Origin: Pseudeuparius sepicola
Taxonomy: Eukaryota; Arthropoda; Insecta; Coleoptera; Anthribidae
Assembly: GCA_963920635.1 (NCBI GenBank)
Contig: OY987308.1
Coordinates: forward strand, 6,390,225-6,454,224
Direction: 5' to 3'
DNA length: 64,000 bases
Shown: positions 22,561 through 41,779 of the stretch, piece by piece
Position numbering within the stretch: the first letter of the stretch is position 1
How the letters are laid out: every line of letters starts with the position of its first letter
Notes under the pieces: generated by a model
Database searches by the model: none
What the model was told of the DNA's origin: nothing
What the model saw: only the letters and a program-made list of their open reading frames with translations
Made by a program: the position numbers and the translations under genes

Positions 22561-22618
22561 AGGTTATTAAGAATTGTTATGACATGTTCAGCTCCCCCTC
22601 TCTACCACTAGGTTAGGA

Positions 22619-22653
22619 TATAAGGTGGTCCGTTCTAGCTGGAGAACTCAGTT
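22619..22653 (+). promoter_or_regulatory. TATA plus TCAGTT initiator for the OB-like gene
   Basis: TATAAG starts at 22619 and the arthropod initiator TCAGTT lies at 22648-22653 with A at 22650, 31 bp downstream. The first ATG after it is 22673, which decides the start of that gene. Confidence 0.75.
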
Positions 22654-22672
22654 TAGTTTGAAAGCAGACAAC

Positions 22673-22984
22673 ATGGATCTACAAGCAATCAACAAGTTGA
22701 CGTGCCTCAATCGGAAATCCAGCATCAAGTTGGCGGAATTACCGCAAGATTTGCCATTGAAAATATATTCAGGCAAGCTGGTGAAGACAAAATTCGGGGA
22801 ATGCGTCTTACTGGAATTGGAGGAGAATGTTGTATTCCTACCGCAGAGAGTCACGGTAGCATTCAAGCCACACTTGGAGGATTTCTCATTTGAAAGATAT
22901 TCCCTCGTGTTTAAGGGACAACTCAACACTGGAAAACTTCACCCGGGAAATCAGTTTGAGATTGTAGAAAATAAAAATATTTAA
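22673..22984 (+). CDS. Small conserved Maverick protein, OB-like, left copy
   Basis: A 103-residue protein starts at ATG 22673 (an upstream in-frame ATG at 22625 lies before the predicted transcription start). The core reads LKIYSGKLVKTKFGECVLLELEENVVFLPQRVT, predicted as five short beta strands, followed by a helix and more strands. A second member of the same family is encoded on the minus strand at 31739-32056. I recall such proteins in many insect Mavericks. The beta pattern with TKFG and FLP(Q/R)R suggests an OB fold, so single-stranded DNA binding is a reasonable but unproven guess. Intact. Confidence 0.65.
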   Translation: MDLQAINKLTCLNRKSSIKLAELPQDLPLKIYSGKLVKTKFGECVLLELEENVVFLPQRVTVAFKPHLEDFSFERYSLVFKGQLNTGKLHPGNQFEIVENKNI

Positions 22985-23061
22985 ACGAAAAAAAATTTTT
23001 TTAATTATCCAACCTAAACCAACTAATATGATAAATATTAATAATAGGAACTACAGGAAAA

Positions 23062-23098
23062 TATAAATACATGATATTTATAGAGAATCGACTTCAGT
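23062..23098 (+). promoter_or_regulatory. TATA plus TCAGT initiator for the PLA2 gene
   Basis: TATAAATA at 23062-23069, TCAGT at 23094-23098 (A at 23096, 34 bp away), and the ATG at 23102 only six bases after the start site. Confidence 0.7.
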
Positions 23099-23101
23099 CT
23101 A

Positions 23102-23500
23102 ATGTTATCATTCACTGGAGAAGGGTTATTTAACTCGTTAATAAATAAATTACCAATTGAGTTCCACATTCCCGGATATCAATATTGTGGACCTGGTACT
23201 AGACTAGAAAAAAGATTAGCAAGGGGTGACAGTGGAATTAATAGATTAGATACTTTATGTAAAAAACACGATATATTCTACTCAAAAACCGGGTTGCTGG
23301 AAGATCGACATAAAGCTGACTTGGAATTGGAAAATCAAGCTTGGGAAAGAGTTAAAAGCAAAAACGCAAAATTAAGTGAAAAAGCTGCTGCTTGGTTTGT
23401 AACAACGGCAATGAAAGCTAAACGGAAGTTAGGTATGGGTCTAAAAAAGCGTCCCAATTCATTCAGGCGAGATATAGTACGAAAAGTTGAAAATCGTTGA
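23102..23500 (+). CDS. Parvovirus-type phospholipase A2 domain protein
   Basis: A 132-residue protein. Residues 25-33 (GYQYCGPGT) form the calcium-binding loop with the YxGxG pattern. CKKHDIFY (53-60) carries the catalytic His56-Asp57 pair, and KADLELEN (71-78) supplies the second Asp. The remainder is a basic helical tail (KAKRKLGMGLKKRP). The domain is the one found in parvovirus VP1 and in adintovirus virions, where it helps the particle cross endosomal membranes. All key residues are present and the frame is open. The stop overlaps the start of the next frame. Confidence 0.85.
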   Translation: MLSFTGEGLFNSLINKLPIEFHIPGYQYCGPGTRLEKRLARGDSGINRLDTLCKKHDIFYSKTGLLEDRHKADLELENQAWERVKSKNAKLSEKAAAWFVTTAMKAKRKLGMGLKKRPNSFRRDIVRKVENR

Positions 23501-24273
23501 AAAAATCATTTAACAACAATCAGCTGAATAACGTTAACAATATTAAAAATACAACATTAGCTGCCATCAAAGCTGCACGACTAGCTGTTAAAAGAGTGGG
23601 AGGAAAAAGAAAGGTGCGAATACCAAGAATTATCCCATTTCAGCACAAAACCGGTGGGTTTCTACCGTTGATTCCAATCCTAGCTCCATTGGGAGGTCTT
23701 GGATCGGTAGCTGGAGGTGCTAGTGCTGTTGCTAAAACTATAATCGATGCCAAAAATGCTCAAAAAAAGATGGTTGAAGAAAAACGACATAATCGAGCAA
23801 TAGAAGCTATTGGAAAAAAAGGATCAGGTCTTTATATGCGAAAAAATAATCGTGGTGGATTTGGTTTGTTTTTTTTTTTCAAAAAAAACTTAGTTCAAAA
23901 ACTTCCTCTAAAGCTTCCTAATAGACCATTAACTGATGTTGACCTAAATAAATTTGCTAGAAAAATAAAAGTGCCGCAGTTTAAAGGTATATTTATGAGA
24001 GACACGCTTCCAAAAACAAAACCAAATGCAAATGAGTCTGCAATTATAAATTTAGATATTCAAAGCAATAAGGGAACACACTGGGTAGCATATATAAAAA
24101 AGAATAATTTTGTACAGTATTTTGATAGTTTTGGTAACTTAAAACCACCTATAGAACTTATTCGTTACTTAGGTAAGGGGGTTAAGATTTTATACAACGA
24201 GTCCTATCAAAAATTTAATGAAATAAATTGTGGTCACCTGTGCCTCGCATTTCTCTATAAAAAGCAGAGGTAA
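23497..24273 (+). CDS. Core-peptide-like region fused to an adenain-like cysteine protease
   Basis: An open frame of 258 codons. The first half is basic then Gly/Ala-rich (GGKRKVRIPRIIPF, ILAPLGGLGSVAGGASAVAK) and ends KKGSGLYMRKNNRGGFGLF, like small core or membrane-lytic virion peptides. The second half is the protease: PLTDVDLNKFARKIKVPQF, then THWVAYI (catalytic His), QYFDSFG (Asp) and NCGHLCLAF (Cys). It would cleave capsid precursors. The frame has no ATG until codon 92 (23770) and opens at the PLA2 stop, so translation needs a shift from the PLA2 frame, an upstream splice or an internal start. A 13-T run near 23867 is a weak point. Confidence 0.75.
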   Translation: MKKSFNNNQLNNVNNIKNTTLAAIKAARLAVKRVGGKRKVRIPRIIPFQHKTGGFLPLIPILAPLGGLGSVAGGASAVAKTIIDAKNAQKKMVEEKRHNRAIEAIGKKGSGLYMRKNNRGGFGLFFFFKKNLVQKLPLKLPNRPLTDVDLNKFARKIKVPQFKGIFMRDTLPKTKPNANESAIINLDIQSNKGTHWVAYIKKNNFVQYFDSFGNLKPPIELIRYLGKGVKILYNESYQKFNEINCGHLCLAFLYKKQR

Positions 24274-24291
24274 GCTTAGAGTCAACTCAGT
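24256..24291 (+). promoter_or_regulatory. TATA plus TCAGT initiator for the minor capsid gene
   Basis: TATAAAAAGC at 24256 lies inside the end of the protease gene. TCAGT at 24287-24291 has A at 24289, 33 bp from the TATA box, and the ATG is at 24293. The transcript would have a four-base leader. Confidence 0.75.
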
Positions 24292-24292
24292 C

Positions 24293-25000
24293 ATGTCACT
24301 GATATTCACCCTACATGGTTTCACTTCAACGCTAAGTATTGACTTTAATAATACAATATATTTAGATTCTGATGTTCAGTATGGTCTAGCATTGTTAGGA
24401 TTTCATTCATACAATACTATTCCGAATATTGAGGCGCCTAATAACAAATTTTATGTTTTCAATGAAAACAATGAACGAAAACTTATAGAAATTCCTACTG
24501 GGTCATATGAAATTAGTGCTATAGAAAGACAAATATTGAAATCTTTGAAAAAGTTAGATAACAATCCAAATATATTTTCATTGAAAGCTAACAATAGTAC
24601 GCTTCAGTGTGAAATTTATAGTGATCAATACACCATTGATTTTCAGCAGGATTCAATAGGAAAATTGTTAGGTTTCTCTAACCGCTTACTACAATCAAAG
24701 AAACTTCACATATCAGATTTACCTGTAAGCATTGTTAAAGTTAGAACGATTCATATAGATAGTAATATAACGGCTGGAGCATACTATAATAATAAACCAT
24801 CGCATACTATTTACGAATTTGCTGTGGGGACCGACCCCGGTTACGCGATAGACGAAACTCCAAGAAATTTGCTATACGTACCCGTTACCAAGCGTGAAAT
24901 TAATAATTTATCATTATCAATTTTTGATCAAAATTCCCACTTGGTAAATTTCAGAGGTGAAGAAATAATTGTAAGATTAGAATTAAAAAAGTTTTTATAA
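24293..25000 (+). CDS. Penton-like minor capsid protein (single jelly roll)
   Basis: A 235-residue protein from ATG 24293 (MSLIFTLHG), chosen because a TATA/initiator pair sits just upstream of it. It is beta-rich: TSTLSIDFNNTIYLD, YGLALLGFHSYNTIPNI, then a helical insert (ISAIERQILKSLKKL) and FQQDSIGKLLGFSNRLL, ending with LVNFRGEEIIVRLELK. This matches the minor capsid (penton) proteins of insect Mavericks, which sit at the vertices. Position between protease and major capsid supports it. Intact. Confidence 0.75.
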   Translation: MSLIFTLHGFTSTLSIDFNNTIYLDSDVQYGLALLGFHSYNTIPNIEAPNNKFYVFNENNERKLIEIPTGSYEISAIERQILKSLKKLDNNPNIFSLKANNSTLQCEIYSDQYTIDFQQDSIGKLLGFSNRLLQSKKLHISDLPVSIVKVRTIHIDSNITAGAYYNNKPSHTIYEFAVGTDPGYAIDETPRNLLYVPVTKREINNLSLSIFDQNSHLVNFRGEEIIVRLELKKFL

Positions 25001-25001
25001 A

Positions 25002-25214
25002 ATGGGTCTAGTTTTTGATGACGCTAGATATCAACCGTATAAAAGGAGATCACAATATTCTCAAAAATCACTCCCTCAAAGGTCTCATAAGTGTGAACCT
25101 CGTGAGAAGAATCTTATACCTACACCTGAAAATCTAAAGTTTTTAAAATCTCTTGGGTACGATGTCGTTAACACCTCAAGTGTTCGACGTGTATCGCTCA
25201 CCAAAATTCGATGA
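25002..25214 (+). CDS. Short conserved virion-module protein
   Basis: A 70-residue frame starts one base after the minor capsid stop and overlaps the major capsid start. It is basic and Ser/Gln-rich, and ends in LIPTPENLKFLKSLGYDV. A C-terminal motif of the form T-x-E-N-x-x-F-L-x-S-L-G is something I remember from the same place in other insect Mavericks, so it is probably a real small protein. No function known. The major capsid promoter lies inside it. Confidence 0.5.
   Translation: MGLVFDDARYQPYKRRSQYSQKSLPQRSHKCEPREKNLIPTPENLKFLKSLGYDVVNTSSVRRVSLTKIR
25038..25072 (+). promoter_or_regulatory. TATA plus TCACT initiator for the major capsid gene
   Basis: TATAAAAGG at 25038-25046 and TCACT at 25068-25072 (A at 25070, 32 bp). 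The 92-base leader has no ATG before 25162, so the first start on that transcript is the capsid start. Confidence 0.6.
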
Positions 25215-26394
25215 ATCAATTCAACGATTGGAGACACGTACCTATTACCCATTTGTTAAGTCTTTTATGAATAATGATATAGTGGAAATAACTATCAATC
25301 AAGGTGATGCCTGGCTATTAATGTACGATGCCGCGATATTTATTAAAGGAAAAATAGAGAAAACAGGGGGAGCAGGTACTTTCAGCCTTGTCAATAATGG
25401 TGCTGCTTTTTTCTTTGAATCTATATCTTATGAACTGAATGGTAAAGAAATTGATGCTGTTAGAGATCCTGGTATCATGAGTTCAATTAGAGCATATTTG
25501 TGTTACACTCCTAATGATCATAAACATATGATGACTTCGAGTTGGACCTGTCCAGAAAAATTTTCTGTTTTGAATAAGGATGATTCGTTCAGCTTAAGAA
25601 TCCCTCTTAAGCACTTATTTGGTATTTTTAATGACTATCAATATGCTATTTGCGGTAAGCAAACCATAAGACTCATAAGATCTCGAAATGATGCCAACTG
25701 TTTGCTATTAAAAGAAACTCCAGGAATAATCCCAGAATTAACTGCAGAACTAACCATTAGCAGTATCGAGCTGAAGGTAAAGCATATTCAACCCAATGAC
25801 ATGATTAGACTGGATCTGTTGAAAGCAATCAAAAGCAATAAACCTATTTTAATTCCGTTTCGTAAATGGGAATTACACGAATTACCAAATCTCACCGAAA
25901 ATGCCACTAGAGAAATATGGTCGGTGAAAACATCTACAGCAGTCGAGAGTCCGAGATTTGCTATAGTTGGATTTCAGACAGATCGTAAAGAGAACTCAAA
26001 AGAAGATCCTACACAGTTCGATCGTATAGATATCTCGGACGTTAGGTTAATCTTAAACGGTAATTATTATCCATTTGAACGGTTAAGGCAAGATTTCAAT
26101 AAGGATTATGTAGAATCATACAATAATTATACTGATTTTCATCCAAGTTTTATGAATACTCGAGATAAGCGTCCTATTCTCAGTTACAAAGACTTTAAAG
26201 AACATGCAACTCTTTTTGTTATCGATTGTTCCAAAAGAAACGAGTCCGTAAAAACCAGCACGGTTGACGTAAAGTTAGATATCGAGAGCACCAAAGGATT
26301 TCCAGCTAAAACTAGAGTTTATTGTATTATTATTCATGATTGTATACTAGAATATTTACCGTTGAGCGAAACTGTTAGAAATATAATGATTTAA
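25162..26394 (+). CDS. Major capsid protein (double jelly roll, hexon-like)
   Basis: A 410-residue protein from ATG 25162. The N-terminus reads LTPQVFDVYRSPKFDESI. Two beta-rich halves follow: one around INQGDAWLLMYDAAIFIKGKI and AFFFESISYELNGKEID, the second around RFAIVGFQTDRKENS, DRIDISDVRLILNGNYYPF and PILSYKDFKEHATLFVIDCS, closing with TRVYCIIIHDCILEYLP. This arrangement and many of these segments are those of Maverick/adintovirus major capsid proteins, which build the icosahedral shell. Length is near the usual value for insect Mavericks. Intact, with no stop or shift. Confidence 0.85.
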   Translation: MSLTPQVFDVYRSPKFDESIQRLETRTYYPFVKSFMNNDIVEITINQGDAWLLMYDAAIFIKGKIEKTGGAGTFSLVNNGAAFFFESISYELNGKEIDAVRDPGIMSSIRAYLCYTPNDHKHMMTSSWTCPEKFSVLNKDDSFSLRIPLKHLFGIFNDYQYAICGKQTIRLIRSRNDANCLLLKETPGIIPELTAELTISSIELKVKHIQPNDMIRLDLLKAIKSNKPILIPFRKWELHELPNLTENATREIWSVKTSTAVESPRFAIVGFQTDRKENSKEDPTQFDRIDISDVRLILNGNYYPFERLRQDFNKDYVESYNNYTDFHPSFMNTRDKRPILSYKDFKEHATLFVIDCSKRNESVKTSTVDVKLDIESTKGFPAKTRVYCIIIHDCILEYLPLSETVRNIMI

Positions 26395-26433
26395 ATAACA
26401 AACCCCCTCTCCTTTGCTTAACTATCAATTGGA

Positions 26434-26467
26434 TATAAAAACGTATCGGTTAGTGAAGAAAACCATT
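26434..26467 (+). promoter_or_regulatory. TATA plus initiator for the 158-residue protein
   Basis: TATAAAAACG at 26434 and the pyrimidine-rich initiator CCATTC with A at 26464 (30 bp). ATG 26497 is the first start downstream. Confidence 0.55.
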
Positions 26468-26496
26468 CTCTGTAAAAGTATAGATAAAACGTAACC

Positions 26497-26973
26497 ATGA
26501 AAATTGCAGTTATTGACATTCAAGGCTTCATGGTGGAAAATGAATTCCATCCTAAAGAGCTGACAATTAAAATTAACGAACAAATATTACACGTATTATT
26601 AAAACTGTTCAGAGATTTTAATTCACTTAGTAAATTCGGTAAAAGACATGTTAGAAATCTTGAAAAAAATCGTTTAGGAATTAAATATTCCAGTGGATAT
26701 GTGGACTATAGTGAATTACCCAAAATAGTAGAAAATATTTTGTTCAACGTCAATTCAGTCTACGTTAAAGGTGATCAAAAGGCAAGATTTTTACGTAATG
26801 TTATCGACAAGAAAATAGTTGATGTTGGAGATCTTCAGAACAATTGGATTCAAGTACCAAAGTTTGAGAAGGAGATACCATCATGCTTGTGTCACACAGA
26901 ACATAAGAAATGGTTATGCAGTTTAAGTAATTGTGAAAAACTATATAGTTGGCTACAAACATTTTTACCATAA
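26497..26973 (+). CDS. Conserved Maverick-associated protein, function unknown
   Basis: A 158-residue protein starting MKIAVIDIQGFMVENEFHPKE. A beta strand ending in DIQGF, followed later by VKGDQKARFLRNVI and a C-terminal Cys/His cluster (CLCHTEHKKWLCSLSNCEKLYSWL), is a pattern I recall in proteins encoded next to Maverick capsid genes in insects. The opening resembles the first strand of RNase-H-like folds and the Cys/His residues could bind zinc, but neither is shown. It follows the major capsid gene by about 100 bp and has its own promoter. Intact. Confidence 0.5.
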   Translation: MKIAVIDIQGFMVENEFHPKELTIKINEQILHVLLKLFRDFNSLSKFGKRHVRNLEKNRLGIKYSSGYVDYSELPKIVENILFNVNSVYVKGDQKARFLRNVIDKKIVDVGDLQNNWIQVPKFEKEIPSCLCHTEHKKWLCSLSNCEKLYSWLQTFLP

Positions 26974-27073
26974 TATATTATGTTAGTTTAATCTGTAATG
27001 TAGTATAAAAATAATTAAATTTTTAATAATACTTAGTTGTTTATTTTAATTACCCCCTCCAAATACATATAGA

Positions 27074-27108
27074 TATAAATTACAAAATCTTAACAAATAT
27101 CCTACAGT
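27074..27108 (+). promoter_or_regulatory. TATA plus ACAGT initiator for the membrane protein gene
   Basis: TATAAATT at 27074 and CAGTTT with A at 27106 (32 bp), then ATG 27119 after a 13-base leader. Confidence 0.6.
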
Positions 27109-27118
27109 TTTATTCAAG

Positions 27119-27583
27119 ATGTTGTTAAAAGCAGAATACATTTTTTTGCATGCTATAATTAACAACGTGTTCTATATTTATAAACCAACCTATGTAGACG
27201 AATTTGCAATTTGTGTGGATAAACATCCTATAAAATGGATTCCTTTTATACCTGTACCTGATACTAAGGATATTGTAATGGTAAATCTACCTACAAGTTT
27301 TGCATACTACAAAATTAGAATGACATTTAAAAATCGAACAATTGCTGATACACAATGGTTAATCCATTGCTCAAAAATCTATAACAAAACTAATCTAACA
27401 TCTAATAATACACAAGGAACTCAGCAAGGATCTCAACGGTGTATGGGAGAAGTGAACCTGCTGTACATGATCTACTTTATAACAACATGTTCATCGTTAT
27501 TAGTCGTGAAATTGCTTATTAAACTTATTCAGAGAGTACTTAGTGAACGAAAATGGTATACAACAATATTAAGAAAAAACTAA
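27119..27583 (+). CDS. Predicted single-pass membrane protein of the viral element
   Basis: A 154-residue protein. The central part is a hydrophilic beta-rich domain with possible N-glycosylation sites (NRT, NKT, NLT). A hydrophobic segment at about 114-138 (LLYMIYFITTCSSLLVVKLLI) is followed by a basic tail. The N-terminal stretch YIFLHAIINNVFYIY is also hydrophobic and might be a signal. No family recognised. It has its own TATA/initiator pair. Intact; role in the virion envelope or host membrane is speculation. Confidence 0.45.
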   Translation: MLLKAEYIFLHAIINNVFYIYKPTYVDEFAICVDKHPIKWIPFIPVPDTKDIVMVNLPTSFAYYKIRMTFKNRTIADTQWLIHCSKIYNKTNLTSNNTQGTQQGSQRCMGEVNLLYMIYFITTCSSLLVVKLLIKLIQRVLSERKWYTTILRKN

Positions 27584-27774
27584 AATCAAAATCTGTCATT
27601 GTATCGTACGTATTAAATAAAAAGTTAAAAATATATCAAGTATTTCATTTACACCCTATCTATAATTTCTATAATCTGTTGCAGAGCAACATTTTTATCT
27701 TATTCAAGTTAGAAGAGCAAAGTATGATGATATTTATTGACGGTGGTTTTAGAGTATTAAACGCTAAAAAGTAG
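27553..27774 (+). CDS. Small basic ORF overlapping the membrane protein gene
   Basis: A 73-residue ATG frame overlaps the previous gene by 31 nt. It is Lys/Tyr/Phe-rich (MVYNNIKKKLKSKSV...IDGGFRVLNAKK). No family recognised. It could be chance in AT-rich DNA; kept because its start lies at the end of a real gene and its coding-like strand agrees with the neighbours. Confidence 0.25.
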   Translation: MVYNNIKKKLKSKSVIVSYVLNKKLKIYQVFHLHPIYNFYNLLQSNIFILFKLEEQSMMIFIDGGFRVLNAKK

Positions 27775-27783
27775 TATACTTAC

Positions 27784-28137
27784 CTGTAAAGTTATCTTTC
27801 ATGATTGTTTTAACACTATCTTTATACTTAGCACTTCTCAACATTTTTATGTTGCAATTTTTTGTAGTAGGTAAATTGGGAGAAAAATAAAAATTAATAA
27901 CATAAATTTGATGATACATGTATATTAAAATAAAAATTAAAACAAGAGTTAACATAAAAGTAAGACTAAAAATAGGAATACAGATTAAAATAAAAATAAA
28001 ATACAAATATAAACTAACTATATACAAATGTTAAGAAGTCATGTTAAGTCAAGTTACGTTAGTCAAGTTACGTTAAGTCAAGTCAATGCCTATTCTAAAG
28101 CAAAAAGAGGTAATGTGCAGTTGACCCGAGAACTAAG
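27784..28137. other. AT-rich spacer with short GTCAAGTTACGTTA repeats
   Basis: No gene. It is very AT-rich (runs of TAAAATAAAAA) up to 28030, then AAGTCAAGTTACGTTA-type motifs are repeated at 28040-28085. It separates plus-strand virion genes from the minus-strand gene that ends at 28138. Confidence 0.45.
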
Positions 28138-29058
28138 TTATTTTGTTCTTATCCTCTGCAAAAGTTTAGTAGTTAATAATTCATCTCTTTGAATTTTTTC
28201 TTGTCGTTTTAATAACATTTTTTTCCGTTTCTCTAATTGAACCTGTTGTTTCTCTATTTGAATTAGTTCCCGGGTCAACTGTACATTATCTCTTTTAGAC
28301 TTAGAATTTGCTCTCCTCAAGAAGTTTGTCGTATTCATCAGATATTGGCTTACACTAATATCCTCTTTCATAACATCCACCTGAAACTCATCTCCTCTAT
28401 CATCCATTGGGTCAATAGTCTGACTCACCGACAGTAAACTGAGGTCATCGTCAGAGTCGTCATTGTCATTGTCATGTGTTTGGTCGTAGCAACTCGCCAA
28501 CACCTTGCCCTTTCCCTTGCCCTTTCCGTATCCCGAAGGACCAGGTTGTGGCTCCGCGACGACGGTAGTGGCAGCAGGGATACGTCGCAGACTAAGGGAT
28601 GGTCGTGTCCTGGGCGGCTTCGCGGGAGCGGCGTGACGCTGCTTCTGAGGCTGCAAAGCTTCTAGCGGACCTAGAAGACTCCGGCAACAACAGAGATGGG
28701 CTTCCAGCGATACTCCTGGTGAGCTTAGACGGTCCCGGTAGCAATAGGGCTGGGCTTTTGGTGGAGCACCTAGCGGAGCTGGAGGGACCCGGCGATGTGA
28801 CGTCAACGGAACTGACCGGGCTGTATGCTTGATCCGGACGCCACTGCGAGGCTTCCTGATCATTCATAATCTCCCCCAAATTCATTCCAGGCGGCTGTAA
28901 AATAAAATTATATTTCATATAACTGAAAAACTTCTACTTAAATACACTTTTTAGAAGCTCCTACTTCCTAAACTACTCTCATAAAACAAAAAAATTAAAA
29001 AAATACTTACAATCACTAATTGATCCAGGATGTTAATTTTGTTGTTTCCAAAATCCAT
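28138..29058 (-). pseudogene. Spliced Ser/Pro-rich gene with coiled-coil C-terminus, frame disrupted
   Basis: On the minus strand, ATG at 29058 opens a 48-nt first exon (MDFGNNKINILDQLVI) ending at a GTAAGT donor (29010). An acceptor TTTTACAG lies at 28902-28895, and the second exon continues in frame with PPGMNLGEIMNDQEAS. It is Ser/Pro/Ala-rich to a stop at 28592. A well-formed continuation exists only in another frame from about 28560 down: PQPGPSGYGKGKGKGK, an acidic stretch, then a Lys/Gln/Glu coiled coil to 28138. Either a frameshift or a second intron joins them. GC content is far above the surroundings, so a host origin is possible. No family recognised. Confidence 0.45.
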
Positions 29059-29211
29059 TGTGGTCACAGAGTACAAAAGCACAAAAACAAACGAAAACAC
29101 AATCACGCAAGCTCGCAGACACAAAGGTACAAGTCGTATAGGAGGTGATGTTCAATAAACACTGAAGAAATAAACAAATAGTGAATTATTATATTGAAAC
29201 AAACTGCATTG

Positions 29212-29396
29212 TCCACAATTTGTATAGGTAGGGGATTCCTTCCTATACAGCTTATTCTCAGAGTTCATCAACACAGGCGTAGAGTTACTTCCTGCAGTAT
29301 CCACAATTTGTATAGGTATACGATTGCATCCTGTGCTATATGATAACTGCTTACTCGCAGAGTTCATTAACACAGGCATAGGGTTACTTCCTGAGA
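29212..29396. repeat. Imperfect 88-bp tandem duplication
   Basis: TCCACAATTTGTATAGGTA begins at 29212 and again at 29300, and both copies end with AACACAGGC(G/A)TAG...TTACTTCCTG. It is noncoding, between the Ser/Pro-rich gene and the IAP gene. Confidence 0.7.
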
Positions 29397-29460: not shown

Positions 29461-29676
29461 GATACCGGAAACGTGTAATCCGACACTGGAGTATCAAATT
29501 ACATTCGATTGAAACCCGACACCCGAAACGTGTAATCTGCCACTGGGATATCAAATTACATTCGATTGAAACCCGACACCGGAAACATGTAATCTGACAC
29601 CGGTGTATCAAATTACATTCGATTGAAATCCGACACCGGAAACGTGTAATCTGACACTGGGATATCAAATTACATA
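29461..29676. repeat. 57-bp minisatellite, four units
   Basis: Units start at 29461, 29518, 29575 and 29632, each with GA(C/T)AC(C/A)CGGAAACGTGTAATC and ATCAAATTACATTCGATTG. The period is a multiple of three, so a long open frame with 19-residue repeats exists on the minus strand, but there is no other sign of a gene. Confidence 0.8.
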
Positions 29677-29808: not shown

Positions 29809-30336
29809 TTACGGTAGAAATGCTCGCACCCTATTGGTTACAATTTGTCTACACAACGGACATGTTTCTATCGATGGTGAACACTTCATACAAAATACTA
29901 GATGTCCACAAGGTATCATCGGGATTTCTATATTATTTTCGTAACAGATTTTACATAACATGTTACTCATATACTCAGTTTCTGGAGTAGGTTTGGTGAT
30001 ATATACATTTTCTGGAGCAGGCTTAGAGAAAAAACTTTCATCTTCTGTAACGGCATTAGGACGAATTTCGATACCGTAAACTTCACTATCTCCACGATTT
30101 GTGATAAATGGACAATTCGGACTCCAACTTCTGTGGTCTTGCATAGGGTCATCATCAACCTTCCATTGGTAACCCTCGATGAAGCAATAGGGACATTGTA
30201 CTGTATCATCGGAGCTCGTATAAAAAAAGCCTGCCTCCGCCAGGTTTCTCGTTGCCTTAAACACATGCTCTTGCGGCCAATTTTCGAACGATTTTAGTCT
30301 ATTATCAAATTTTTTATATTCCGAAATTAATTCCAT
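29809..30336 (-). CDS. iap: Inhibitor of apoptosis: single BIR plus C-terminal RING
   Basis: A 175-residue protein. The BIR domain (about 20-75) reads RNLAEAGFFYTSSDDTVQCPYC...DDPMQDHRSWSPNCPF, with the zinc ligands C-x2-C, H and C in place. The RING finger (about 132-168) has CKICYENN, PCGHLVFCMKC and CPLCR. The protein would bind caspases or their activators through BIR and act as an E3 ubiquitin ligase through RING. The single-BIR layout is shorter than the two-BIR IAPs of insects and baculoviruses. It lies within the viral element between repeats and the replication genes. Intact; probably a captured host or viral gene. Confidence 0.85.
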   Translation of the reverse strand: MELISEYKKFDNRLKSFENWPQEHVFKATRNLAEAGFFYTSSDDTVQCPYCFIEGYQWKVDDDPMQDHRSWSPNCPFITNRGDSEVYGIEIRPNAVTEDESFFSKPAPENVYITKPTPETEYMSNMLCKICYENNIEIPMIPCGHLVFCMKCSPSIETCPLCRQIVTNRVRAFLP

Positions 30337-31738: not shown

Positions 31739-32056
31739 TTAGAGTAATTCGTAAGATGAAAATTCTATGTTGGTTGTTCTACCTGGTGCTGGTCCAAGAC
31801 TTGCCAAAAAAAATGTTTCTCCACTTTCGATCTTCTTGTTTATTTCTGCGATACGTTGGGGGGTAAATTCTTCAGTAAATCTACGTGGTAACAAAGTACG
31901 GAACTCCAACAATTCTACTAACACTTTCTCTCCAAACCTTGTATGGATTTTACTAAAAGATGATATTCTATACTTTTCTCCAATTTCCATATCTCGCACA
32001 CTTACGAACTTCTTCACTAATAAATTCTTGTTTAAATAACTTAGGAATGAGTTCAT
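31739..32056 (-). CDS. Small conserved Maverick protein, OB-like, right copy
   Basis: The probable start is the ATG at 32056 (MNSFLSYLNKNLL); an in-frame ATG at 32119 would add 21 hydrophobic residues. The core GEKYRISSFSKIHTRFGEKVLVELLEFRTLLPRRFT aligns with the protein at 22673 (KIYSGKLVKTKFGECVLLEL...FLPQRVT). It is followed by a helix (PQRIAEINKKIESG) and TFFLASLGPAPGR. Same fold guess: OB-like, possibly binding single-stranded DNA. It is divergent from the DNA polymerase gene with under 140 bp between starts, so a shared bidirectional promoter is likely. Intact. Confidence 0.65.
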   Translation of the reverse strand: MNSFLSYLNKNLLVKKFVSVRDMEIGEKYRISSFSKIHTRFGEKVLVELLEFRTLLPRRFTEEFTPQRIAEINKKIESGETFFLASLGPAPGRTTNIEFSSYELL

Positions 32057-32194
32057 GTTTTTAATAAGTATAGTGTTCAACAATAGTGGCATACTAATAA
32101 ATTTCAGAAACACCGTCACTGAATTTATAGTACCGCAAATAGGTGGCGTTTACATTTCCGAGAGATATACATCACGGTATAGATCAACTTAGAA

Positions 32195-35100: not shown

Positions 35101-35906
35101 TAAACTGATGAATAACGCAGTTTACGGAAAGACTATGGAAAATATTCGAAAGCATAGAATCGTTAAATTAGTTAGGAAATGGAATGGGAGATACGGAGCA
35201 AAGAATCTAATTGCTAGCCCAGTTTTTAAAAGCAGATTAATATTTGATGAAGACTTAATAGCTATTGAACTAAATAAAACTGAAATAGTATTTAATAAGC
35301 CTTTGTATATAGGTATGGCAATTCTCGATATTTATAAAACTTGTGTATACGAATTTCATTATGATTATATGCTTCCAAAATTTTCATCGGAAACTTGTAA
35401 ACTACTTTATACAGATACGGATAGTTTGATTTACGAAGTAAAATGTAACGATGTCTATGGTGAGACTATCAAAAGTGATTTACATCGTTTTGATACCAGC
35501 GACTACCCAATTGACAATAGATATAATATTCCACTAACAAATAAGAGTGCCAGGCTTGATGAAAGACGAACTTAATGGTACTGTTATGACTCATTTCGTT
35601 GGTCTCAGATCTAAAATGTATACGTATTTGATTGAGGGGGAGAAAAAATGTGTTAAAAAATCAAAAGGAATTAAACATAGTGTTATTAAAAATCATATAA
35701 CATTTGATGATTATGTGAATTGTTTATTTAAGAAGAAGGAAAAGACTGCCACCCAATGCTCTATCCGTTCGTTTGCTCACAACGTGTTTAGCATAAAACA
35801 AACTAAGATTGCTCTCAGCCCTTTTGACGATAAACGATATTTGGTAAATAATGTTGTCACTCTACCTTGGGGTCATAAAGATATAATGGATGCTGTACCA
35901 GTATAG
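32195..35906 (+). pseudogene. polB: Protein-primed DNA polymerase B, broken by one stop and three frameshifts
   Basis: The gene starts at ATG 32195. The N-terminal half includes the conserved ACVNVKNNDDLCFLWAVVS segment (about 250) and a Cys/His finger (CDRCLNYYSSQEKLDEHISYC). The exonuclease begins with VILSDFESI. The polymerase palm has YLDVNNLYFWAM (motif A), KLMNNAVYGK (motif B, about 35103-35132) and YTDTDSL (motif C, about 35411). A TAA at 33848-33850 interrupts an otherwise continuous frame. A small deletion with frameshift lies near 34410, a second shift near 34960 and a third near 35550. The enzyme would copy the linear genome from a terminal protein. Not functional as it stands. Confidence 0.9.
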
Positions 35907-35993
35907 ATTTCACATGTACTTATGATATATGTAATGTATTTATTTAGGTAAGAATAAATAAAAGTCATATTAACTTTAATATTGTTTTATTTC

Positions 35994-36677
35994 TTAAACC
36001 CTTCTTCTATACAAATCCGTTAAAACAAATTCTTTATCAAAAGAGAGAAGCTCGAATATACAATATGTTTCAATACTAAACGATAAGTTACATACAGACA
36101 TTACAATATCTACAGGATCCATAACATAATTACATTTTCTTAGCAACTTATTAACTTGATCTAAAATATTATGATAATGTTCAAGATAGTTACATTTTAG
36201 CAATAAGTTGATCTTTAAACTAATACTCTCGTCAATGGTGAGTAGCTCCAATACTTCGTTTTCGGTGAAATAATGACAGTCATCATTCTTACAGAGTATA
36301 ACCATCTTGAGGTTGTTAAAACCCAGCATTGTTCTCAATTCCAGGTTGGAGCCGAACTTCATTGATGACTGTGCAATATCAGGATTAAAGAGATATTGTT
36401 CTGCGAGTTTATTTAATTGTAGTATAAACTCATTCCATTCAAAGCGGTCCATAGAAATCATACCTTGTGTTAGTTCATGTACAATTTTGACTGCTGGTCG
36501 GAAGAAGCGTACGGGACTCAACCCACAATGAACCGTAAACAAATTCTCTGGTTTTATCACAAATCGTGTACTTAAGAGCATGTGCTTTTCATTTCGAATA
36601 GCCTCTTCATAAAGCTCTAGGATTCGATTAATTTCATTGTTTTCTTCACTTCTTGTGCTGTATCCAGAGTCACTCAT
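35994..36677 (-). CDS. Uncharacterised viral-element protein, 227 residues
   Basis: The protein starts MSDSGYSTRSEENNEINR and has a conserved-looking block FVIKPENLFTVHCGLSPVRFFRPAVKIVHELT...MISMDRFEWNEFILQLNKL near 40-95. The rest is helical with several Cys. The pattern V-K-I-x-H...-I-S-(M/L)-x-x-x-E-W resembles the core of PC4-like single-stranded DNA-binding domains, but the likeness is short and I would not assign it. It lies between polymerase and integrase, convergent with the polymerase. Intact. Confidence 0.45.
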   Translation of the reverse strand: MSDSGYSTRSEENNEINRILELYEEAIRNEKHMLLSTRFVIKPENLFTVHCGLSPVRFFRPAVKIVHELTQGMISMDRFEWNEFILQLNKLAEQYLFNPDIAQSSMKFGSNLELRTMLGFNNLKMVILCKNDDCHYFTENEVLELLTIDESISLKINLLLKCNYLEHYHNILDQVNKLLRKCNYVMDPVDIVMSVCNLSFSIETYCIFELLSFDKEFVLTDLYRRRV

Positions 36678-36707
36678 CTTCGAATTTTGATTTACACAAC
36701 CAACAAC

Positions 36708-37649
36708 TCACAGAACGTTTGTGGCACTTATCCATGAGTCGTGTGTTTTATCTAGACCAAGCCAGCGCACCAACACTTTTCCCCCCCTCCTACGTAGTAC
36801 CCTCTCTACTAAGTAAATATCTGGATCTGCCGTTTTTTTTAATTCCTCTGTATAGAATCCTCCTTTTATAATATTTCCTCTTACATCTTCGAGTACATAT
36901 GTTACCGGATTAGTTATTTGTATTTTAATAATTTTAAAGACTTCTGTCGTCCAGTTAGGAATATAATCCTTTTCAAAAATATGTTTAGCTTTACTAATTC
37001 TCACCATATCACCCACATTAAATTTTGGTTTGCTAAAAATCTTTAAGTGACTATAAACAGTTTTAAGTAAATGACTTTCGGTACTCTTATTTACATTCTT
37101 AGGCTTCATATGTATAGTACGATGTCTCCTATTATTATATTCGTCGACTATTGAAAGTAACATATCAATCCATTTATATTTACCATTCAAACTAAAATAT
37201 TTGAACATTTGCTCTTTCAGGGTGCGTATAACCCTCTCCACAATTGCAGCTTTTTTAATACTAAATGAACTATAATGATTTATATTAAATTGTTTCATGA
37301 GTTTCTTAAAATGCGTATTGTAAAATTCCTTTCCTAGGTCAGTTTGTAGATTTCGAGGTTGTCGTTTGTGAGATCTTTTCAGAATATTTGTAAAAGCTTT
37401 CGTAACCTCTTCCCCAGACTTTGATTTCAGCGGTTCGCACCAAACGTATTTTGAAAAACAATCAATTACTATCAATATGAATTTAAAATTTTTATTAACT
37501 GTCGCATACTGATCCATTTGCGCAAGATCAGCTTGCCAGAGATCGTCTAATCCTTTGATAATAGTTCGCCGGCGAGAATAATTTTTTCTAGCCGGTGTAT
37601 GTAGTTCCTTAACCAACTTAATTTTTTCTTTACTGTGCTGTGTTTTCAT
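36708..37649 (-). CDS. Retrovirus-type integrase with C-terminal chromodomain
   Basis: A 313-residue protein. The rve core has the first Asp in LWQADLAQMD (about 38), the second in LQTDLGKEF (about 104) and the Glu in AIVERVIRTLK (about 138). A DNA-binding SH3-like region (FNVGDMVRISK) follows. The chromodomain at about 280-313 reads YLVERVLRRRGGKVLVRWLGL...HDSWI. It would insert the linear viral DNA into host chromatin, with the chromodomain reading histone marks. All catalytic residues are present and the frame is open. Maverick/adintovirus integrases have this architecture. Confidence 0.9.
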   Translation of the reverse strand: MKTQHSKEKIKLVKELHTPARKNYSRRRTIIKGLDDLWQADLAQMDQYATVNKNFKFILIVIDCFSKYVWCEPLKSKSGEEVTKAFTNILKRSHKRQPRNLQTDLGKEFYNTHFKKLMKQFNINHYSSFSIKKAAIVERVIRTLKEQMFKYFSLNGKYKWIDMLLSIVDEYNNRRHRTIHMKPKNVNKSTESHLLKTVYSHLKIFSKPKFNVGDMVRISKAKHIFEKDYIPNWTTEVFKIIKIQITNPVTYVLEDVRGNIIKGGFYTEELKKTADPDIYLVERVLRRRGGKVLVRWLGLDKTHDSWISATNVL

Positions 37650-37700
37650 TATTATATTTGTAAAATGGTTTTAGATTATCAATTTTATTCGATAGTTCCA

Positions 37701-38018
37701 CTATCTTTTTATCTTTCTCTTCGATACACAATTGAGTGTATTTTCATGTACCGTTGCAGTAGTTATTTTATGTAACTGTCTGTGAATATAATCGAAAATT
37801 TTGGTTCTTATTTCATTAACAGTTTGATCAACATATCGCTTGTTTGTTGCGTCACTATTTTCGTTTGGAGTTTGAAGATTACTAATCTTCAAATTCTTTA
37901 CATCTATATTACCATTCGGAGTAAACTCGAAAATAGTGTTACTTGTATGGATCGATGAAGATAAATGTGATGAATAAATTTTAGAATTAGAATATTGTCC
38001 AAACTTATTGACACTCAT
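37701..38018 (-). CDS. Fibre-like protein with tail-fibre type motif
   Basis: A 105-residue protein. After an N-terminal MSVNKFGQYSNSKIYSS, it has IDVKNLKISNLQTPNENS and then DATNKRYVDQTV. The combination I-x-N-(V/L)-x-x-P-x-x-x-x-D-A-x-N-K-x-Y-V-D is typical of trimeric tail-fibre and attachment proteins of phages and of fibre-like proteins in Mavericks. A short heptad-like helix (VNEIRTKIFDYIHRQL) follows. Probably a trimeric attachment fibre stalk. It shares the strand of the integrase and ATPase genes. Short compared with complete fibres. Confidence 0.6.
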   Translation of the reverse strand: MSVNKFGQYSNSKIYSSHLSSSIHTSNTIFEFTPNGNIDVKNLKISNLQTPNENSDATNKRYVDQTVNEIRTKIFDYIHRQLHKITTATVHENTLNCVSKRKIKR

Positions 38019-38059
38019 AGTGGATATGATGATAATTTTAGCTCGCCCTTATATTTATA

Positions 38060-39115
38060 TTAGCGAATAATGTTAGCTTCTGTTAACTCATTGATAATAG
38101 CAACAATTTCATTATCGTGAGAGGTGTTTCCAGCTTGTTTAGAGGCTACAAGGAGCCTTAATCTATCTATCAACTCATTTACATCATCCCAATAAACGAA
38201 TTCTATAGGCTTTTTATTGTAGGTAAGGTTCATGCCGGTACCACATGCCGTCGATTGTGAACGTGTTTTAGGTTTAGGTATTTCAGTTTCTTGTTCACCT
38301 CTAACTAGAGGCTTGATAATATCACTATATTTAAATCGATTTGAACCTTTTAATTTACCCGCTGAGTTGAGGTGGACACTAGTTAAAGTTAAAATCTTTT
38401 TATAATTTTTTCTGTCTTCAAGGTTGCACTGTGGATCATCATAAAAAATTAAATTGTAAAGTCCTTCTGTACCCGGAAACCGATACAACCCATCAACGAG
38501 TATGTCTCCTGTAGGCTTATCAAAGTCAATAAATTTTCTTCCCAGTATCCATTTTGATTTAGAAGCATCGTAAACAGGTCCGTATACCTTATCAATTTTA
38601 GATGACTTGTCCCCATGTTCACGGATATATGGTCTTAGTATTTCCGGATAAGATTCTAGGTATTCGTCTATAACATCCTGAGGGTAGTTCGACATATCAT
38701 TATCATCATCTTCTTCAAAAACGTTATCAGGATTGGGTTCATTAGAATTTTCCCAATGACTCTAGGGTAGTGTAAACGATCCCTGTAATTTATTAATGCC
38801 CAACTTCAGCACATCAAGCTTTTTGTTGATTCTATCTTCAATTCCATCTTGTATTAATTTTGTTTGTTTATCTAAATCAATATTATCATCCTCATCTTCT
38901 TCTTTAGGTTCTAGTTTGATATCATTTTCATTCTTGGATTTTATCATTTTTTCTAAAGATTTTGTTACTGGCTTAAAAACTTTCTCGAGCGACTCATCTT
39001 CTTCAAGTCTCCCTAATTTTAACGCAGTATATTTTTTTCTAATCGAGCGTGTGAGTTCTCTAATTTTCTTCGCGCGTTGCGCATTTGCAATTTGATCTTG
39101 CGATGTTAGCGGCAT
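38060..39115 (-). pseudogene. DUF8207-like Maverick protein with one in-frame stop
   Basis: One 352-codon frame runs from ATG 39115 to 38060 and is broken only by TAG at 38764-38762. The N-terminal part is a coiled coil (RSIRKKYTALKLGRLEEDESLEKVFKPVTKSL) followed by acidic residues. The C-terminal part has KVYGPVYDASKSKWILGRKFIDFD and DILVDGLYRFPGTEGLYNLIF, then KYKKIL-type and KYSDIIKPL segments. This is the pattern of the insect DUF8207 family found beside Maverick genes (name from memory). Function unknown; perhaps structural. Confidence 0.7.
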
Positions 39116-39142
39116 CTTTCCAAATTAACTTATGACACTAAC

Positions 39143-39830
39143 TTACAGCTTTATATACTTATCGAAACCACTTCTATACCGTCCGGTATTCAACCCAAAA
39201 TCCTTAACGATTACTAATGTTCCGTAAGAATCACTCCAACATCGATGACACAAATCCTTAAATTGTTCATAAGTTAAATCTGGAGTTACATGCTCGTCAT
39301 ATACATGTCTTAAATTGATATCGTCTTGCTTAAAAAGCACAATCATGTTGCAGTTATCTCGTATCAACTGTTTAGGTATCTTTGAATAGGTTTGACAAAG
39401 ATATGTTACATCAATACTTTTGTGACGACCCATTGAATAGAATTCTCGTATTTTATCTTGCTTGTCGCAAGCTACATCGTCAAAAATAAAAACAGAATTT
39501 TCCAGAGGCTCCGATGGATCAATAACATCATCGTTAGCTTTGAATGGAAAATATTTAATTTTATCACCAACCTTTTCTAAGACATTTTGTTTTGTTGGAA
39601 TAGCGATTTACTGTATACATATATATTCTCAAATTTAAGACCATTTTCACTGAATATAAGACTGAGAAGGGCATTGGTTTTACCACAGTTACTCGGTCCG
39701 CAAAAAATTGCTCTAATAGAATTTGGAAGTAGTTCACCATGTTTAGATTTTTGGTGATGTCCTGCATCTGCAATATCCAAATTTTCAATGGGTAAAGTCC
39801 TTTGCTGTTGTTGAAATCACATTTTAATGA
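39143..39830 (-). pseudogene. Genome-packaging ATPase (FtsK/HerA-like), frameshifted
   Basis: The N-terminal part carries the Walker A motif CGPSNCGKTNALL (39660-39705) in the frame IENLDIADAGHHQ. After SLFQQNK near 39590 the frame shifts. The continuation has the Walker B segment SVFIFDDVACDKQDK, the sensor-like REFYSMGRHKSID and TYLCQTYSKIPKQLIRDN, then the C-terminal RYRSGFDKYIKL. The N-terminal ATG is followed directly by TGA (near 39817), so the start also looks damaged. It would power DNA entry into the capsid. Order and motifs match Maverick ATPases. Confidence 0.82.
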
Positions 39831-40035
39831 TGTTTGAAGTCACTGTATACATACGTACCTATTTATACTATCTTTTTATGGTGGGGGTTTAACTTACCGC
39901 TTTTTAATAATCAAACTGTGAAGTTCATACTTACGTAAGCAAATATTATACTAACTAGTGGGGGCAAGATTGGAGGGAGCAGCCGCATAGATCTATATAT
40001 ACGGCAGACAAATTTAATACAATAGTAAAGTAATA

Positions 40036-40443
40036 ATGGATTTCATTAAAATTGAAGTAGATGCATACGTTGCTTCTCAAAAAGTGTACAACCGTTCCTG
40101 TAGTGGTGAAAAATTAATATAGTTGCTTGGTAAACCAGATTTTATAATACCGAATGAAAGCTTCACAGAAGTTGCTGAAGGAGCATGTAGTGTTGCGGAG
40201 TGTTGCCTAATGTTGGAAAAGAAGCGAAAAATTGATAATTATATTAAAATCATAATCAACATTTGTGATCAAGAAAATATTGAAGAAATGAATTTTACCA
40301 CAGTCGAAAAGCTTATGAAGGATCATTGCCTGGAAGATACCATTGCATATAAAGTACACGTTTTTAGTTTAATATCAAATTTTAATCTATACAATTTGGA
40401 GGACTCTTATCTACGAAGGCGTAGAAGGGCCACTTTTCTTTAA
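40036..40443 (+). pseudogene. Small viral-element gene ending in the terminal repeat, one nonsense codon
   Basis: ATG 40036 opens MDFIKIEVDAYVASQKVYNRS and stops at TAG 40120. The same frame continues from 40123 to 40443 with PNESFTEVAEGACSVAECCLML and a helical stretch, ending RRRRRATFL. The last 10 codons lie inside the terminal inverted repeat. A TATATATACGG box at 39994 lies 42 bp upstream. No family recognised. Confidence 0.5.
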
Positions 40444-41057
40444 AATATTTTCTTCGCCTTTAATTTGGTGATATAACACGAAATTAATATTTATTTCATG
40501 ATATAAAGCGAAATTATATTTAATTTCGAGATAATTAACGCAAAATTAAATAAAGCTTCGTGATATAACGCGAAATTATATTTTACTCCGAGTTATAAGG
40601 CGAAATTATATTTAATTTCGTGATAATTAACGCAAAATTAAATATCGCTTCGTGATATAACGCGAAATTATATTTTACTCCGAGTTATAAGGCGAAATTA
40701 TATTTAATTTCGTGATAATTAACGCAAAATTAAATATCGCTTCGTGATATAACGCGAAATTATATTTAATTACGTGAAATTAACGCGAAATTAAATATTG
40801 CTTCTTGATATAACGCGAAATTATATTTTATTTGGAGTTATAACGCGAAATTATATTTAATTTCGAGATAATTAACGGGAAATTAAATATGTATTCGGAG
40901 ATACTGCTAACTGTCGTCTATTCTGTTGGTGTTGGCGACGTTCGCGTTTGTTTCGCTCATTAAACTTCAGTATATTACCTATTTGTAGTTGTGTACTACT
41001 CCGAAAAACTGGAAAATAGGTAAGAAGTGCCAATATTATCAATATACCATTAGGGCT
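40412..41057 (+). repeat. Right terminal inverted repeat of the Maverick element
   Basis: This 646-bp segment is the reverse complement of 55171-55572, apart from extra internal repeat units here. The outer 150 bp (AATATACCATTAGGGCT end, ACCTATTTGTAGTTGTG, TTAAACTTCAGTATATTACC) match closely. The inner part is built of AT-rich motifs (below). Confidence 0.85.
40460..40890 (+). repeat. Tandem GATATAACGCGAAATTATATTTAATTTCG-type motifs within the TIR
   Basis: Units combine GATATAACGCGAAATTATA, TTTAATTTCGTGATAATTAACGC and AAAATTAAATA, and a higher-order unit of about 95 bp is repeated near 40556-40830. The AATTTCG/CGAAATT pairs can fold back. The other TIR copy has fewer units. Confidence 0.75.
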
Positions 41058-41743: not shown

Positions 41744-41779
41744 TATACGGAGCTGCGGATCTACGATCTACAGGTCAGA

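What the first reader, a model, noticed from the sequence alone, without database searches (positions are those of the whole stretch)
22561..41057. Nearly complete adintovirus-type Maverick with a full virion gene set
One block holds PolB, retroviral integrase with chromodomain, packaging ATPase, adenain-like protease, two jelly-roll capsid proteins, PLA2, fibre-like and DUF8207-like proteins, and an IAP. Polintons/adintoviruses are established as virus-like integrating elements. This one keeps intact capsid genes, which suggests recent virion formation or selection.
Basis: partly seen in the sequence, partly recalled or inferred. Interest (0 to 1): 0.9.

Follow-up and report, generated by a model that had tools for sequence, protein, structure and literature searches.

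The report
Decaying Maverick provirus with broken polymerase
This is one old, damaged copy of a virus-like Maverick transposon that sits in many places in its host's genome; its capsid genes are still readable, but its polymerase and packaging genes are broken and one end is gone, so it is a fossil of a burst of insertions and not a working virus.

Summary
The genes are real, but the reading needs correction. Sister copies in the same 769-Mb genome show one Polinton/Maverick element of about 20 kb, with 648-bp inverted repeats starting AGT and 6-bp target duplications in 9 of 10 copies examined. In the window it starts at 22370. The Maverick resumes at 55573 and is cut off at 56334, its right repeat lost. 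Major capsid gene (Pfam double jelly-roll, E=8.5e-74), PLA2, integrase and IAP are open; the penton is supported by position only. PolB is in five pieces and the ATPase is frameshifted. At least 69 capsid-gene copies of this family exist, plus 33 of a second. In 21 capsid genes, changes private to one copy look near neutral (50 replacement, 17 silent, 2 stop); the 3 shared ones are all silent. So selection acted mainly before insertion. Unexpected: a gene cassette at about 28.1-29.1 kb is a diverged version in 2 of 4 sisters. Verdict: a well-documented new member of a known kind.

The parts
22370..23017 (.). left terminal inverted repeat, starts AGTAGTTAAGC
   Evidence: similarity to 10 of 10 sister copies starts here; 648-bp TIR, 97% between the two ends in the three sister copies checked
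22673..22984 (+). small ORF (103 aa) lying inside the TIR; paralogue of 31739-32095
   Evidence: blastp E=2e-7 between the two
23102..23500 (+). phospholipase A2-like protein
   Evidence: PF08398 E=4.4e-10
23497..24273 (+). protease candidate with an N-terminal glycine-rich hydrophobic part; His-Asp-Gln-Cys in the order expected of adenain (order recalled)
   Evidence: no Pfam match; best solved-structure match S273R protease E=0.12, not significant; residue positions; frame continuous with PLA2 in 2 of 10 sisters
24293..25000 (+). penton (minor capsid) candidate, 235 aa
   Evidence: position immediately upstream of MCP, as in PMC4028283; same open stretch in 8 of 10 sisters; no profile match; model pLDDT 34
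25162..26394 (+). major capsid protein, 410 aa
   Evidence: PF21738 DJR-like E=8.5e-74
26497..26973 (+). conserved ORF of unknown function
   Evidence: homologue in second-family copies L105 and L106, 68-73% over the parts fetched
27119..27583 (+). conserved ORF of unknown function
   Evidence: homologue in L105 and L106, 41-43%
28091..29146 (-). variable gene cassette (acidic / coiled-coil protein, apparent intron near 28.9 kb by reading; split in two frames here)
   Evidence: 2 of 4 sisters carry a version 37-38% identical in protein, with 97-98% identity from 29146 on
29461..29675 (.). 57-bp tandem repeat
29809..30336 (-). IAP: one BIR and a RING, 175 aa
   Evidence: Pfam, solved IAP structures; open and 98-99% in 4 of 4 sisters
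31739..32095 (-). small ORF, paralogue of the TIR ORF
   Evidence: 98% in L102, 47% in L105
32195..35906 (+). PolB, broken: one in-frame stop and three frame changes
   Evidence: five pieces contiguous and colinear with an uninterrupted 1286-aa PolB in L001/L011
35994..36677 (-). ORF of unknown function, 227 aa
   Evidence: no Pfam match
36708..37649 (-). integrase (rve, D-62-D-33-E) with weak C-terminal chromodomain
   Evidence: 60 same-family copies
37701..38018 (-). fibre-like protein
   Evidence: weak PHROGs tail-fibre matches, best 2.3e-4
38060..38695 (-).
   Evidence: open; no Pfam match at E<=0.1
38762..39115 (-). ORF of unknown function
   Evidence: open; only an insignificant Pfam match (0.032)
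39143..39830 (-). packaging ATPase, frame changed between Walker A and Walker B (motifs recalled)
   Evidence: Pox_A32 E=3e-5; frames; 242-aa open stretch in 8 of 10 sisters
40123..40411 (+). right-arm ORF of the Maverick, interrupted by the insertion
   Evidence: an open frame on each side of the insertion, translated apart
40406..40411 (.). target-site duplication CTTATC, left copy
   Evidence: single in 10 of 10 sisters (6-bp overlap of aligned blocks)
40412..55572 (.). inserted IS3EU-type transposon, 15,161 bp, TA..TA termini, inverted repeats 40412-41061 / 55168-55572
   Evidence: criteria; site empty in 10 of 10 sisters
47174..48646 (+). HECT-type ubiquitin ligase ORF inside the insert
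   Evidence: PF00632 E=1.3e-8
52179..53057 (-). DDE transposase of the insert, split by an in-frame stop
   Evidence: PF24764 E=1.1e-13 for 52179-52613; ORFs
55573..55578 (.). target-site duplication CTTATC, right copy
55573..56334 (.). Maverick right arm resumes (11-bp minisatellite 55961-56316); cut off about 640 bp before the terminus
56335..59763 (+). gypsy-type retroelement, apparently without its 5' part, where the right TIR should be
   Evidence: RVT_1, RNase H, integrase; right TIR not found to 17.7 kb downstream at E<=1e-3

Best explanation
The window holds one decayed copy of a Polinton/Maverick element (adintovirus-like gene set). Shown: inverted repeats, 6-bp target duplications, an rve integrase with its catalytic triad, a double jelly-roll capsid gene, many copies, and breaks in PolB that mostly differ from copy to copy. 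Inferred: a replication-competent source copied its linear genome by protein-primed synthesis with PolB, packaged it with the FtsK-type ATPase into icosahedral particles, and entered chromosomes through the integrase joining the AGT..ACT ends. Several dozen insertions of this family came from near-identical sources in a short time (69 capsid-gene copies were found, a few of them local duplicates); each has since decayed largely on its own. This copy lost PolB and ATPase function, took an IS3EU-type transposon in its right arm, and lost its right end, probably by a deletion that joined it to a gypsy fragment. As it stands it should not be able to replicate or package itself.
For: TIR of 648 bp in the 3 sister copies checked and 6-bp TSD in 9 of 10; left end identical in 10 of 10; capsid and integrase genes linked in 44 of 69 copies; PolB broken in 11 of 11 copies examined, window included, with 27 of 30 gap events confined to one row; 69 of 72 classified two-state sites in 21 capsid genes private to one copy; capsid pN/pS 0.11 within 8 family-2 copies, and between families dN 0.154 with silent differences too many to correct; empty IS3EU site in 10 of 10 sisters.
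Against: No virion, transcript or excised form was examined. Left and right TIRs differ by 2.4% within a copy but by 0.5-0.8% among rights or lefts, so the ends were not equalised before insertion as simple panhandle replication might predict. 24 of 69 capsid copies have no integrase match within 30 kb. Two single-base PolB differences are each shared by three of the ten sisters, so not every difference is private. No break in the 8.2 kb of other counted window genes is fewer than the 5.4 expected from the PolB rate (P=0.004; compare P=0.005), though genes were chosen because they were open and two doubtful cases (variable gene, PLA2/protease split) were not counted as breaks.
Confidence: 0.9

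Rival explanations
1. Selection still keeps the capsid genes of inserted copies (co-option by the host, for example for antiviral defence), which is why they are open here.
For: MCP is full-length without a stop in 49 of 69 copies against 0.44 expected from the PolB break rate; INT is full-length and open in 35 of 60, or 47 of 60 if 12 open copies that match only to about residue 300 are counted, against 0.53; pN/pS within the family is 0.52, below 1.
Against: Private capsid changes are 50 replacement to 17 silent plus 2 stops, close to the 3.62:1 of random change; the genome search scores only the best candidates, so open copies are probably over-represented; full-length MCP copies with stops are common (12 of 61). 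The odds were raised from 0.08 to 0.1 on recounting INT.
Confidence: 0.1
2. Mavericks here spread purely as transposons; capsid genes serve no particle.
For: Copies are genomic; no extracellular form was looked for; PMC8097293 (abstract in the listing) says particles of Mavericks have not been observed.
Against: The capsid gene is under strong purifying selection between families and within family 2, and the shared changes in family 1 are all silent (3 of 3); an intracellular role for capsids is possible but less simple.
Confidence: 0.25
3. Two different elements lie side by side: a capsid block on the left and a PolB/integrase block on the right.
For: A high-GC gene lies between them, the integrase side runs on the other strand, and two related small ORFs exist, one in each block.
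Against: 44 of 69 capsid copies have the integrase at a consistent distance and strand; the middle region is shared by 4 of 4 sisters.
Confidence: 0.01
4. The broken frames are assembly errors and the copy is intact.
For: Only one assembly was seen; single-base breaks cannot be checked without reads.
Against: Frame changes do not sit in unusually long homopolymers; sisters have their own breaks, including gaps of 292 and 1418 bases; a 15-kb insertion and a lost end are not base-calling errors.
Confidence: 0.03

Closest known systems
Polinton/Maverick elements
   Same: AGT..ACT TIRs (recalled as typical), 6-bp TSD, PolB, rve integrase, protease candidate, packaging ATPase, DJR capsid with a penton candidate just upstream, about 20 kb in five of six sisters measured
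   Different: This copy is decayed; the family carries an IAP and an exchanged gene cassette
Sf Maverick 1 and 2 of Spodoptera frugiperda cells (PMC5803895, passages read)
   Same: two lineages in one genome, PLA2-bearing capsid-like protein, integrase with C-terminal chromodomain, PolB, ATPase, protease
   Different: reported there to lack the DJR (PY) capsid protein, which is present here; no IAP is mentioned in the passages read
Adintoviruses, including Drosophila-associated adintoviruses 1-3 (PMC8363768, PMC11071296, passages read)
   Same: PolB, integrase, capsid, protease candidate, FtsK-type ATPase
IS3EU/GingerRoot DNA transposons (PMC10045372, passages read)
   Same: the inserted 15.2-kb element has TA..TA termini, 6-bp TSD and an rve-like transposase
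   Different: a HECT ORF lies inside; whether it is part of the transposon was not tested

Membership tests
Polinton/Maverick | terminal inverted repeats with 6-bp target duplication | tested here: met
   sister copies: terminal motif at both ends in 10 of 10, TSD in 9 of 10; the window copy itself keeps only the left TIR
Polinton/Maverick | type B DNA polymerase of the organellar/viral class | tested here: met
   PF03175 3.8e-10 in one piece; colinear with L001 PolB; broken here
Polinton/Maverick | retroviral-type integrase | tested here: met
   PF00665 9.7e-12; solved retroviral integrases, best 1.4e-4
Polinton/Maverick | FtsK/A32-type packaging ATPase | tested here: met
   PF04665 3e-5; frameshifted here
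Polinton/Maverick | adenovirus-type protease | tested here: inconclusive
   no profile match; residue order only
Polinton/Maverick | double jelly-roll major capsid protein | tested here: met
   PF21738 8.5e-74
Polinton/Maverick | single jelly-roll penton | tested here: inconclusive
   position and length only; no profile; model pLDDT 34
Adintovirus (definition in PMC11071296) | PolB with N-terminal OTU-like domain | not tested
   Pfam reported none in the first PolB piece; no structure run was left for it
Adintovirus (definition in PMC11071296) | hexon recognisable by BLASTp against the references | not testable with these tools
   references not held; protein database off
Adintovirus (definition in PMC11071296) | integrase with C-terminal chromodomain | tested here: inconclusive
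   PF00385 E=0.0016 at residues 289-319, below Pfam's cut-off
IS3EU (inserted element) | TA..TA termini and 6-bp TSD | tested here: met
   criteria from PMC10045372
IS3EU (inserted element) | transposase in the IS3EU/GingerRoot clade | not tested
   PF24764 integrase-core match only; no tree

The most novel reading that the evidence does not exclude
The family records a short burst of germline insertions by a replication-competent, capsid-using virus: PolB apparently open in the source, capsid gene constrained before insertion and near neutral afterwards, and accessory genes exchanged between lineages by recombination (a cassette at 28.1-29.1 kb in two versions within copies otherwise about 98% identical where compared; an IAP in 4 of 4 sisters of this family but not found in the one second-family copy whose middle region was covered). 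If so, one genome offers a before/after-insertion test of whether Mavericks spread as viruses.
Probability: 0.4. Interest if true: 0.65.

Novelty: new member of a known kind. Interest (0 to 1): 0.45.

Why it matters
Whether Mavericks make virions in animals is an open question (PMC8097293's abstract, seen in a listing, says particles have not been observed). Here one genome holds many copies of one family in near-star relation, so mutations from before and after insertion can be told apart; the capsid gene shows clear constraint only before. The cassette exchange and the IAP suggest gene traffic and host-cell manipulation of a viral kind. The case also shows how a nested transposon's repeats can be mistaken for a Maverick end.

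Tried and rejected
Two-element hypothesis: rejected. First guess that 40412-41061 was the Maverick TIR, and a search for its partner near 22 kb: nothing clearly above shuffled background. Ongoing selection on inserted capsid genes: not supported by private changes, though open fractions are somewhat above expectation. Second family as donor of the divergent cassette: no support in the two second-family stretches looked at, one of which covers the whole middle region; the only match is 27% over 138 residues, to the window-type version from L101.

Single-sequence structure models of MCP and penton had pLDDT 33 and 34 and were not searched further. IMG/VR scans gave one real relative (L001/L011, the same contig) and otherwise chance loci: L002-L010, L013-L020; L020 looked promising and read as a phage. 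L012 from genome contigs was a chance 30-residue match. MCP, integrase and one PolB piece as single queries found nothing in IMG/VR; A2 found nothing in genome contigs; a PLA2 pattern found nothing. The PolB open-frame tally over the whole genome did not complete. The host was not identified. The DUF8207 name could not be confirmed.
Full report
WHAT WAS CLAIMED AND WHAT IS THERE. Profile searches confirm the core genes: double jelly-roll major capsid protein (PF21738, E=8.5e-74), PLA2 (4.4e-10) and an IAP with BIR and RING (5.5e-23, 1.4e-12); an rve integrase (9.7e-12) with a weak chromodomain (0.0016, below Pfam's cut-off) and a DNA_pol_B_2 match in one PolB piece (3.8e-10); an A32-type packaging ATPase (3e-5). 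The capsid block has an open stretch of 415 aa where 200 Markov controls reach at most 164. The protease and penton are weaker: no profile matches. The penton rests on its place immediately upstream of the capsid gene, which PMC4028283 (passages read) describes for some Polintons, one gene further away being commoner there; the protease rests on the order of His, Asp, Gln and Cys (order recalled; positions) and an insignificant match to a solved viral protease (E=0.12). Structure models without an alignment were uninformative.

ONE ELEMENT. The window lies in a 769-Mb genome of 16 contigs. The integrase has 126 matching rows there: 60 copies of its own family (one of them in two rows) and 65 rows at 71-75% identity that fall into more than one group by length; this is a lower bound, because 125 of 5063 candidates were scored. 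The capsid protein has 103 rows: 69 copies of its own family (one in two rows) and 33 rows at 76-77%, with 102 of 2337 candidates scored. Of the 69, 44 have an integrase on the opposite strand 7.2-15.7 kb downstream, one more has it at 23 kb, and 24 have none within 30 kb. So the capsid block and the PolB/integrase block belong together. A few copies are local duplicates (close neighbours with the same score or sharing one integrase), so insertions are fewer than copies.

ITS TRUE ENDS. Terminal stretches of 10 sister copies show that similarity starts at window position 22370 in all 10, with the same start AGTAGTTAAGC and different flanks. The other end carries the inverse of that start in 10 of 10. 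In the three copies checked the repeats align over 648 bp at 97%; 9 of the 10 copies have identical 6-bp flanks. Six sisters measured span 20.0-22.1 kb. These are the ends expected of a Polinton (AGT termini recalled; 6-bp TSD stated in PMC10045372). A small ORF (22673-22984), related to another at 31739-32095, lies inside the repeat.

THE RIGHT END IN THE WINDOW. PMC10045372 (passages read) gives TA..TA termini and usually 6-bp duplications for IS3EU; an rve-like transposase split by a stop lies at 52179-53057. In 10 of 10 sisters the sequences at 40411 and 55573 are contiguous, overlapping by six bases: the empty site. The Maverick then runs on to 56334, where all 10 sisters continue for about 640 bp to the terminus, but the window enters a gypsy-type element. 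The missing repeat was not found in the rest of the window or the next 10 kb. The window copy thus has a left end and no right end.

WHAT IS BROKEN. PolB lies in five open pieces, contiguous and colinear with an uninterrupted 1286-aa PolB of a metagenomic contig: one in-frame stop and three frame changes. The ATPase changes frame between its Walker A and B motifs; 8 of 10 sisters have a 242-aa open stretch there. The PLA2 and protease frames form one stretch (399 aa) in 2 of 10 sisters and not in the other 8 or in the window, so it is unclear which state is normal. The variable gene near 28.5 kb is split in two frames here. The frame changes do not sit in unusually long homopolymers.

TIMING AND SELECTION. 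In the 10 sisters sampled PolB is broken every time, with at least 1 to 5 breaks and a longest open stretch of 1035 aa. Of 30 gap events in the alignment, 27 occur in one of 11 rows and one is an extra base in one row; the other two are single-base differences each shared by three sisters, not by the window. So the copies were probably inserted with an open PolB and decayed largely separately. At the observed rate (27 breaks counted in 11 copies, 0.66 per kb per copy) one expects the integrase open in 0.53 and the capsid gene in 0.44 of copies. Observed are 49 of 69 for the capsid gene, and 35 of 60 for the integrase, or 47 of 60 if 12 open copies that match only to about residue 300 are counted; the scoring of best candidates favours open copies, so this excess is not strong evidence of selection, but it does not rule it out. 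Among 21 capsid genes (the window and 20 of the other 60 full-length copies, taken at intervals down the ranking; the two most diverged full-length copies were not among them), changes seen in one copy are 50 replacement, 17 silent and 2 stop; changes seen in more than one copy are 0 replacement and 3 silent (Fisher P=0.02); random change would give 3.62 to 1; two complex and one multi-state position were set aside. In 8 of the 33 second-family rows the private changes are 7 replacement to 5 silent and the shared ones 9 to 30 (Fisher P=0.03). So the gene was constrained before insertion and little or not since. Pairwise pN/pS is 0.52 within this family and 0.11 within family 2; between families dN is 0.154 and silent differences were too many to correct. 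The private changes amount to about 0.27% per copy; with a recalled insect rate near 3e-9 per site and generation that is roughly one million generations, a rough figure.

TWO FURTHER POINTS. The left and right repeats differ by 2.4% within copies, while lefts differ by 0.8% and rights by 0.5% among copies (10 sisters; the window's left repeat was added to the lefts); 5 of 711 columns are fixed different. The ends kept separate identities through the burst. And the cassette around 28.1-29.1 kb differs: two of four sisters have the window's type (91-96% in the aligned protein part), two have another version (37-38% in protein, mostly 61-75% in DNA bins with one bin at 44%), while sequence from 29146 on is 97-99% identical where aligned in all four, apart from the variable 57-bp repeats; the other side of the cassette was not fetched, but the capsid genes of these two copies are 98% identical to the window's. 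Recombination with a diverged relative is the simplest account. The IAP is open and 98-99% identical in 4 of 4 sisters and was not found in a second-family copy covered from the 26.5-kb gene to PolB (L105).

COMPARISON. The element meets the tested defining features of Polintons/Mavericks (ends, TSD, PolB, integrase, ATPase, DJR capsid); protease and penton are inconclusive. For adintoviruses, as defined in PMC11071296 (passages read), the chromodomain is weak and two features could not be tested. The closest described case seen is the pair of Mavericks in Spodoptera cells (PMC5803895, passages read), with PLA2 protein and chromodomain integrase but reported without the DJR capsid protein. Open capsid genes are common: PMC4028283 reports full-length MCP in 46 of 72 Polintons, and PMC10328495 (passages read) mentions 12 intact insect Mavericks. 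One search found no paper in the library holding both 'adintovir' and 'inhibitor of apoptosis'; PMC11071296 speaks of anti-apoptotic homologues in other words, so no priority is claimed.

Noticed in passing
window 28091-29146; L103, L104: Gene cassette present in two strongly diverged versions in sister copies that are otherwise about 98% identical where compared; a sign of recombination between element lineages.
   Followed up: partly
window 369-14056: Dense inverted and direct repeats (85-99%) around gypsy-type gag, RT and integrase ORFs on the minus strand.
   Followed up: no
window 47174-48646: HECT-domain ORF inside the IS3EU-type element, with an overlapping ORF at 46840-47214 that has no Pfam match; possibly transposon cargo.
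   Followed up: no
window 43110-44558 and 45154-46010: Two fold-back inverted repeats of 0.3-0.6 kb arms nested in the IS3EU-type element.
   Followed up: no
window 15754-17879: Pogo/Tigger-like DDE_1 transposase (PF03184, E=1.1e-17).
   Followed up: no
window 18685-19068: DUF7869 fragment (7e-7), part of another repeat family; 14362-14952 repeats at 18462-19033 (86%).
   Followed up: no
own genome, second family (for example L061-L068): A second Maverick family, 76-77% in capsid protein, with many identically scoring open copies: a possibly younger burst. Integrase rows at 71-75% suggest more than one further group.
   Followed up: partly
integrase rows: At least 12 open same-family integrase copies match only to about residue 300 and so end differently in the chromodomain region; shared variant or repeated lesion not resolved.
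   Followed up: no
L028 (C1:60546957-60554956): Right arm of one sister copy duplicated in tandem (about 2.2 kb unit).
   Followed up: no
L011 (IMGVR_UViG_3300028392_002905): Metagenomic contig with a Polinton-type PolB and integrase next to a capsid-like gene with no tblastn match to this MCP.
   Followed up: partly
window 22673-22984: A gene lies inside the terminal repeat, so complete copies should carry it twice.
   Followed up: no
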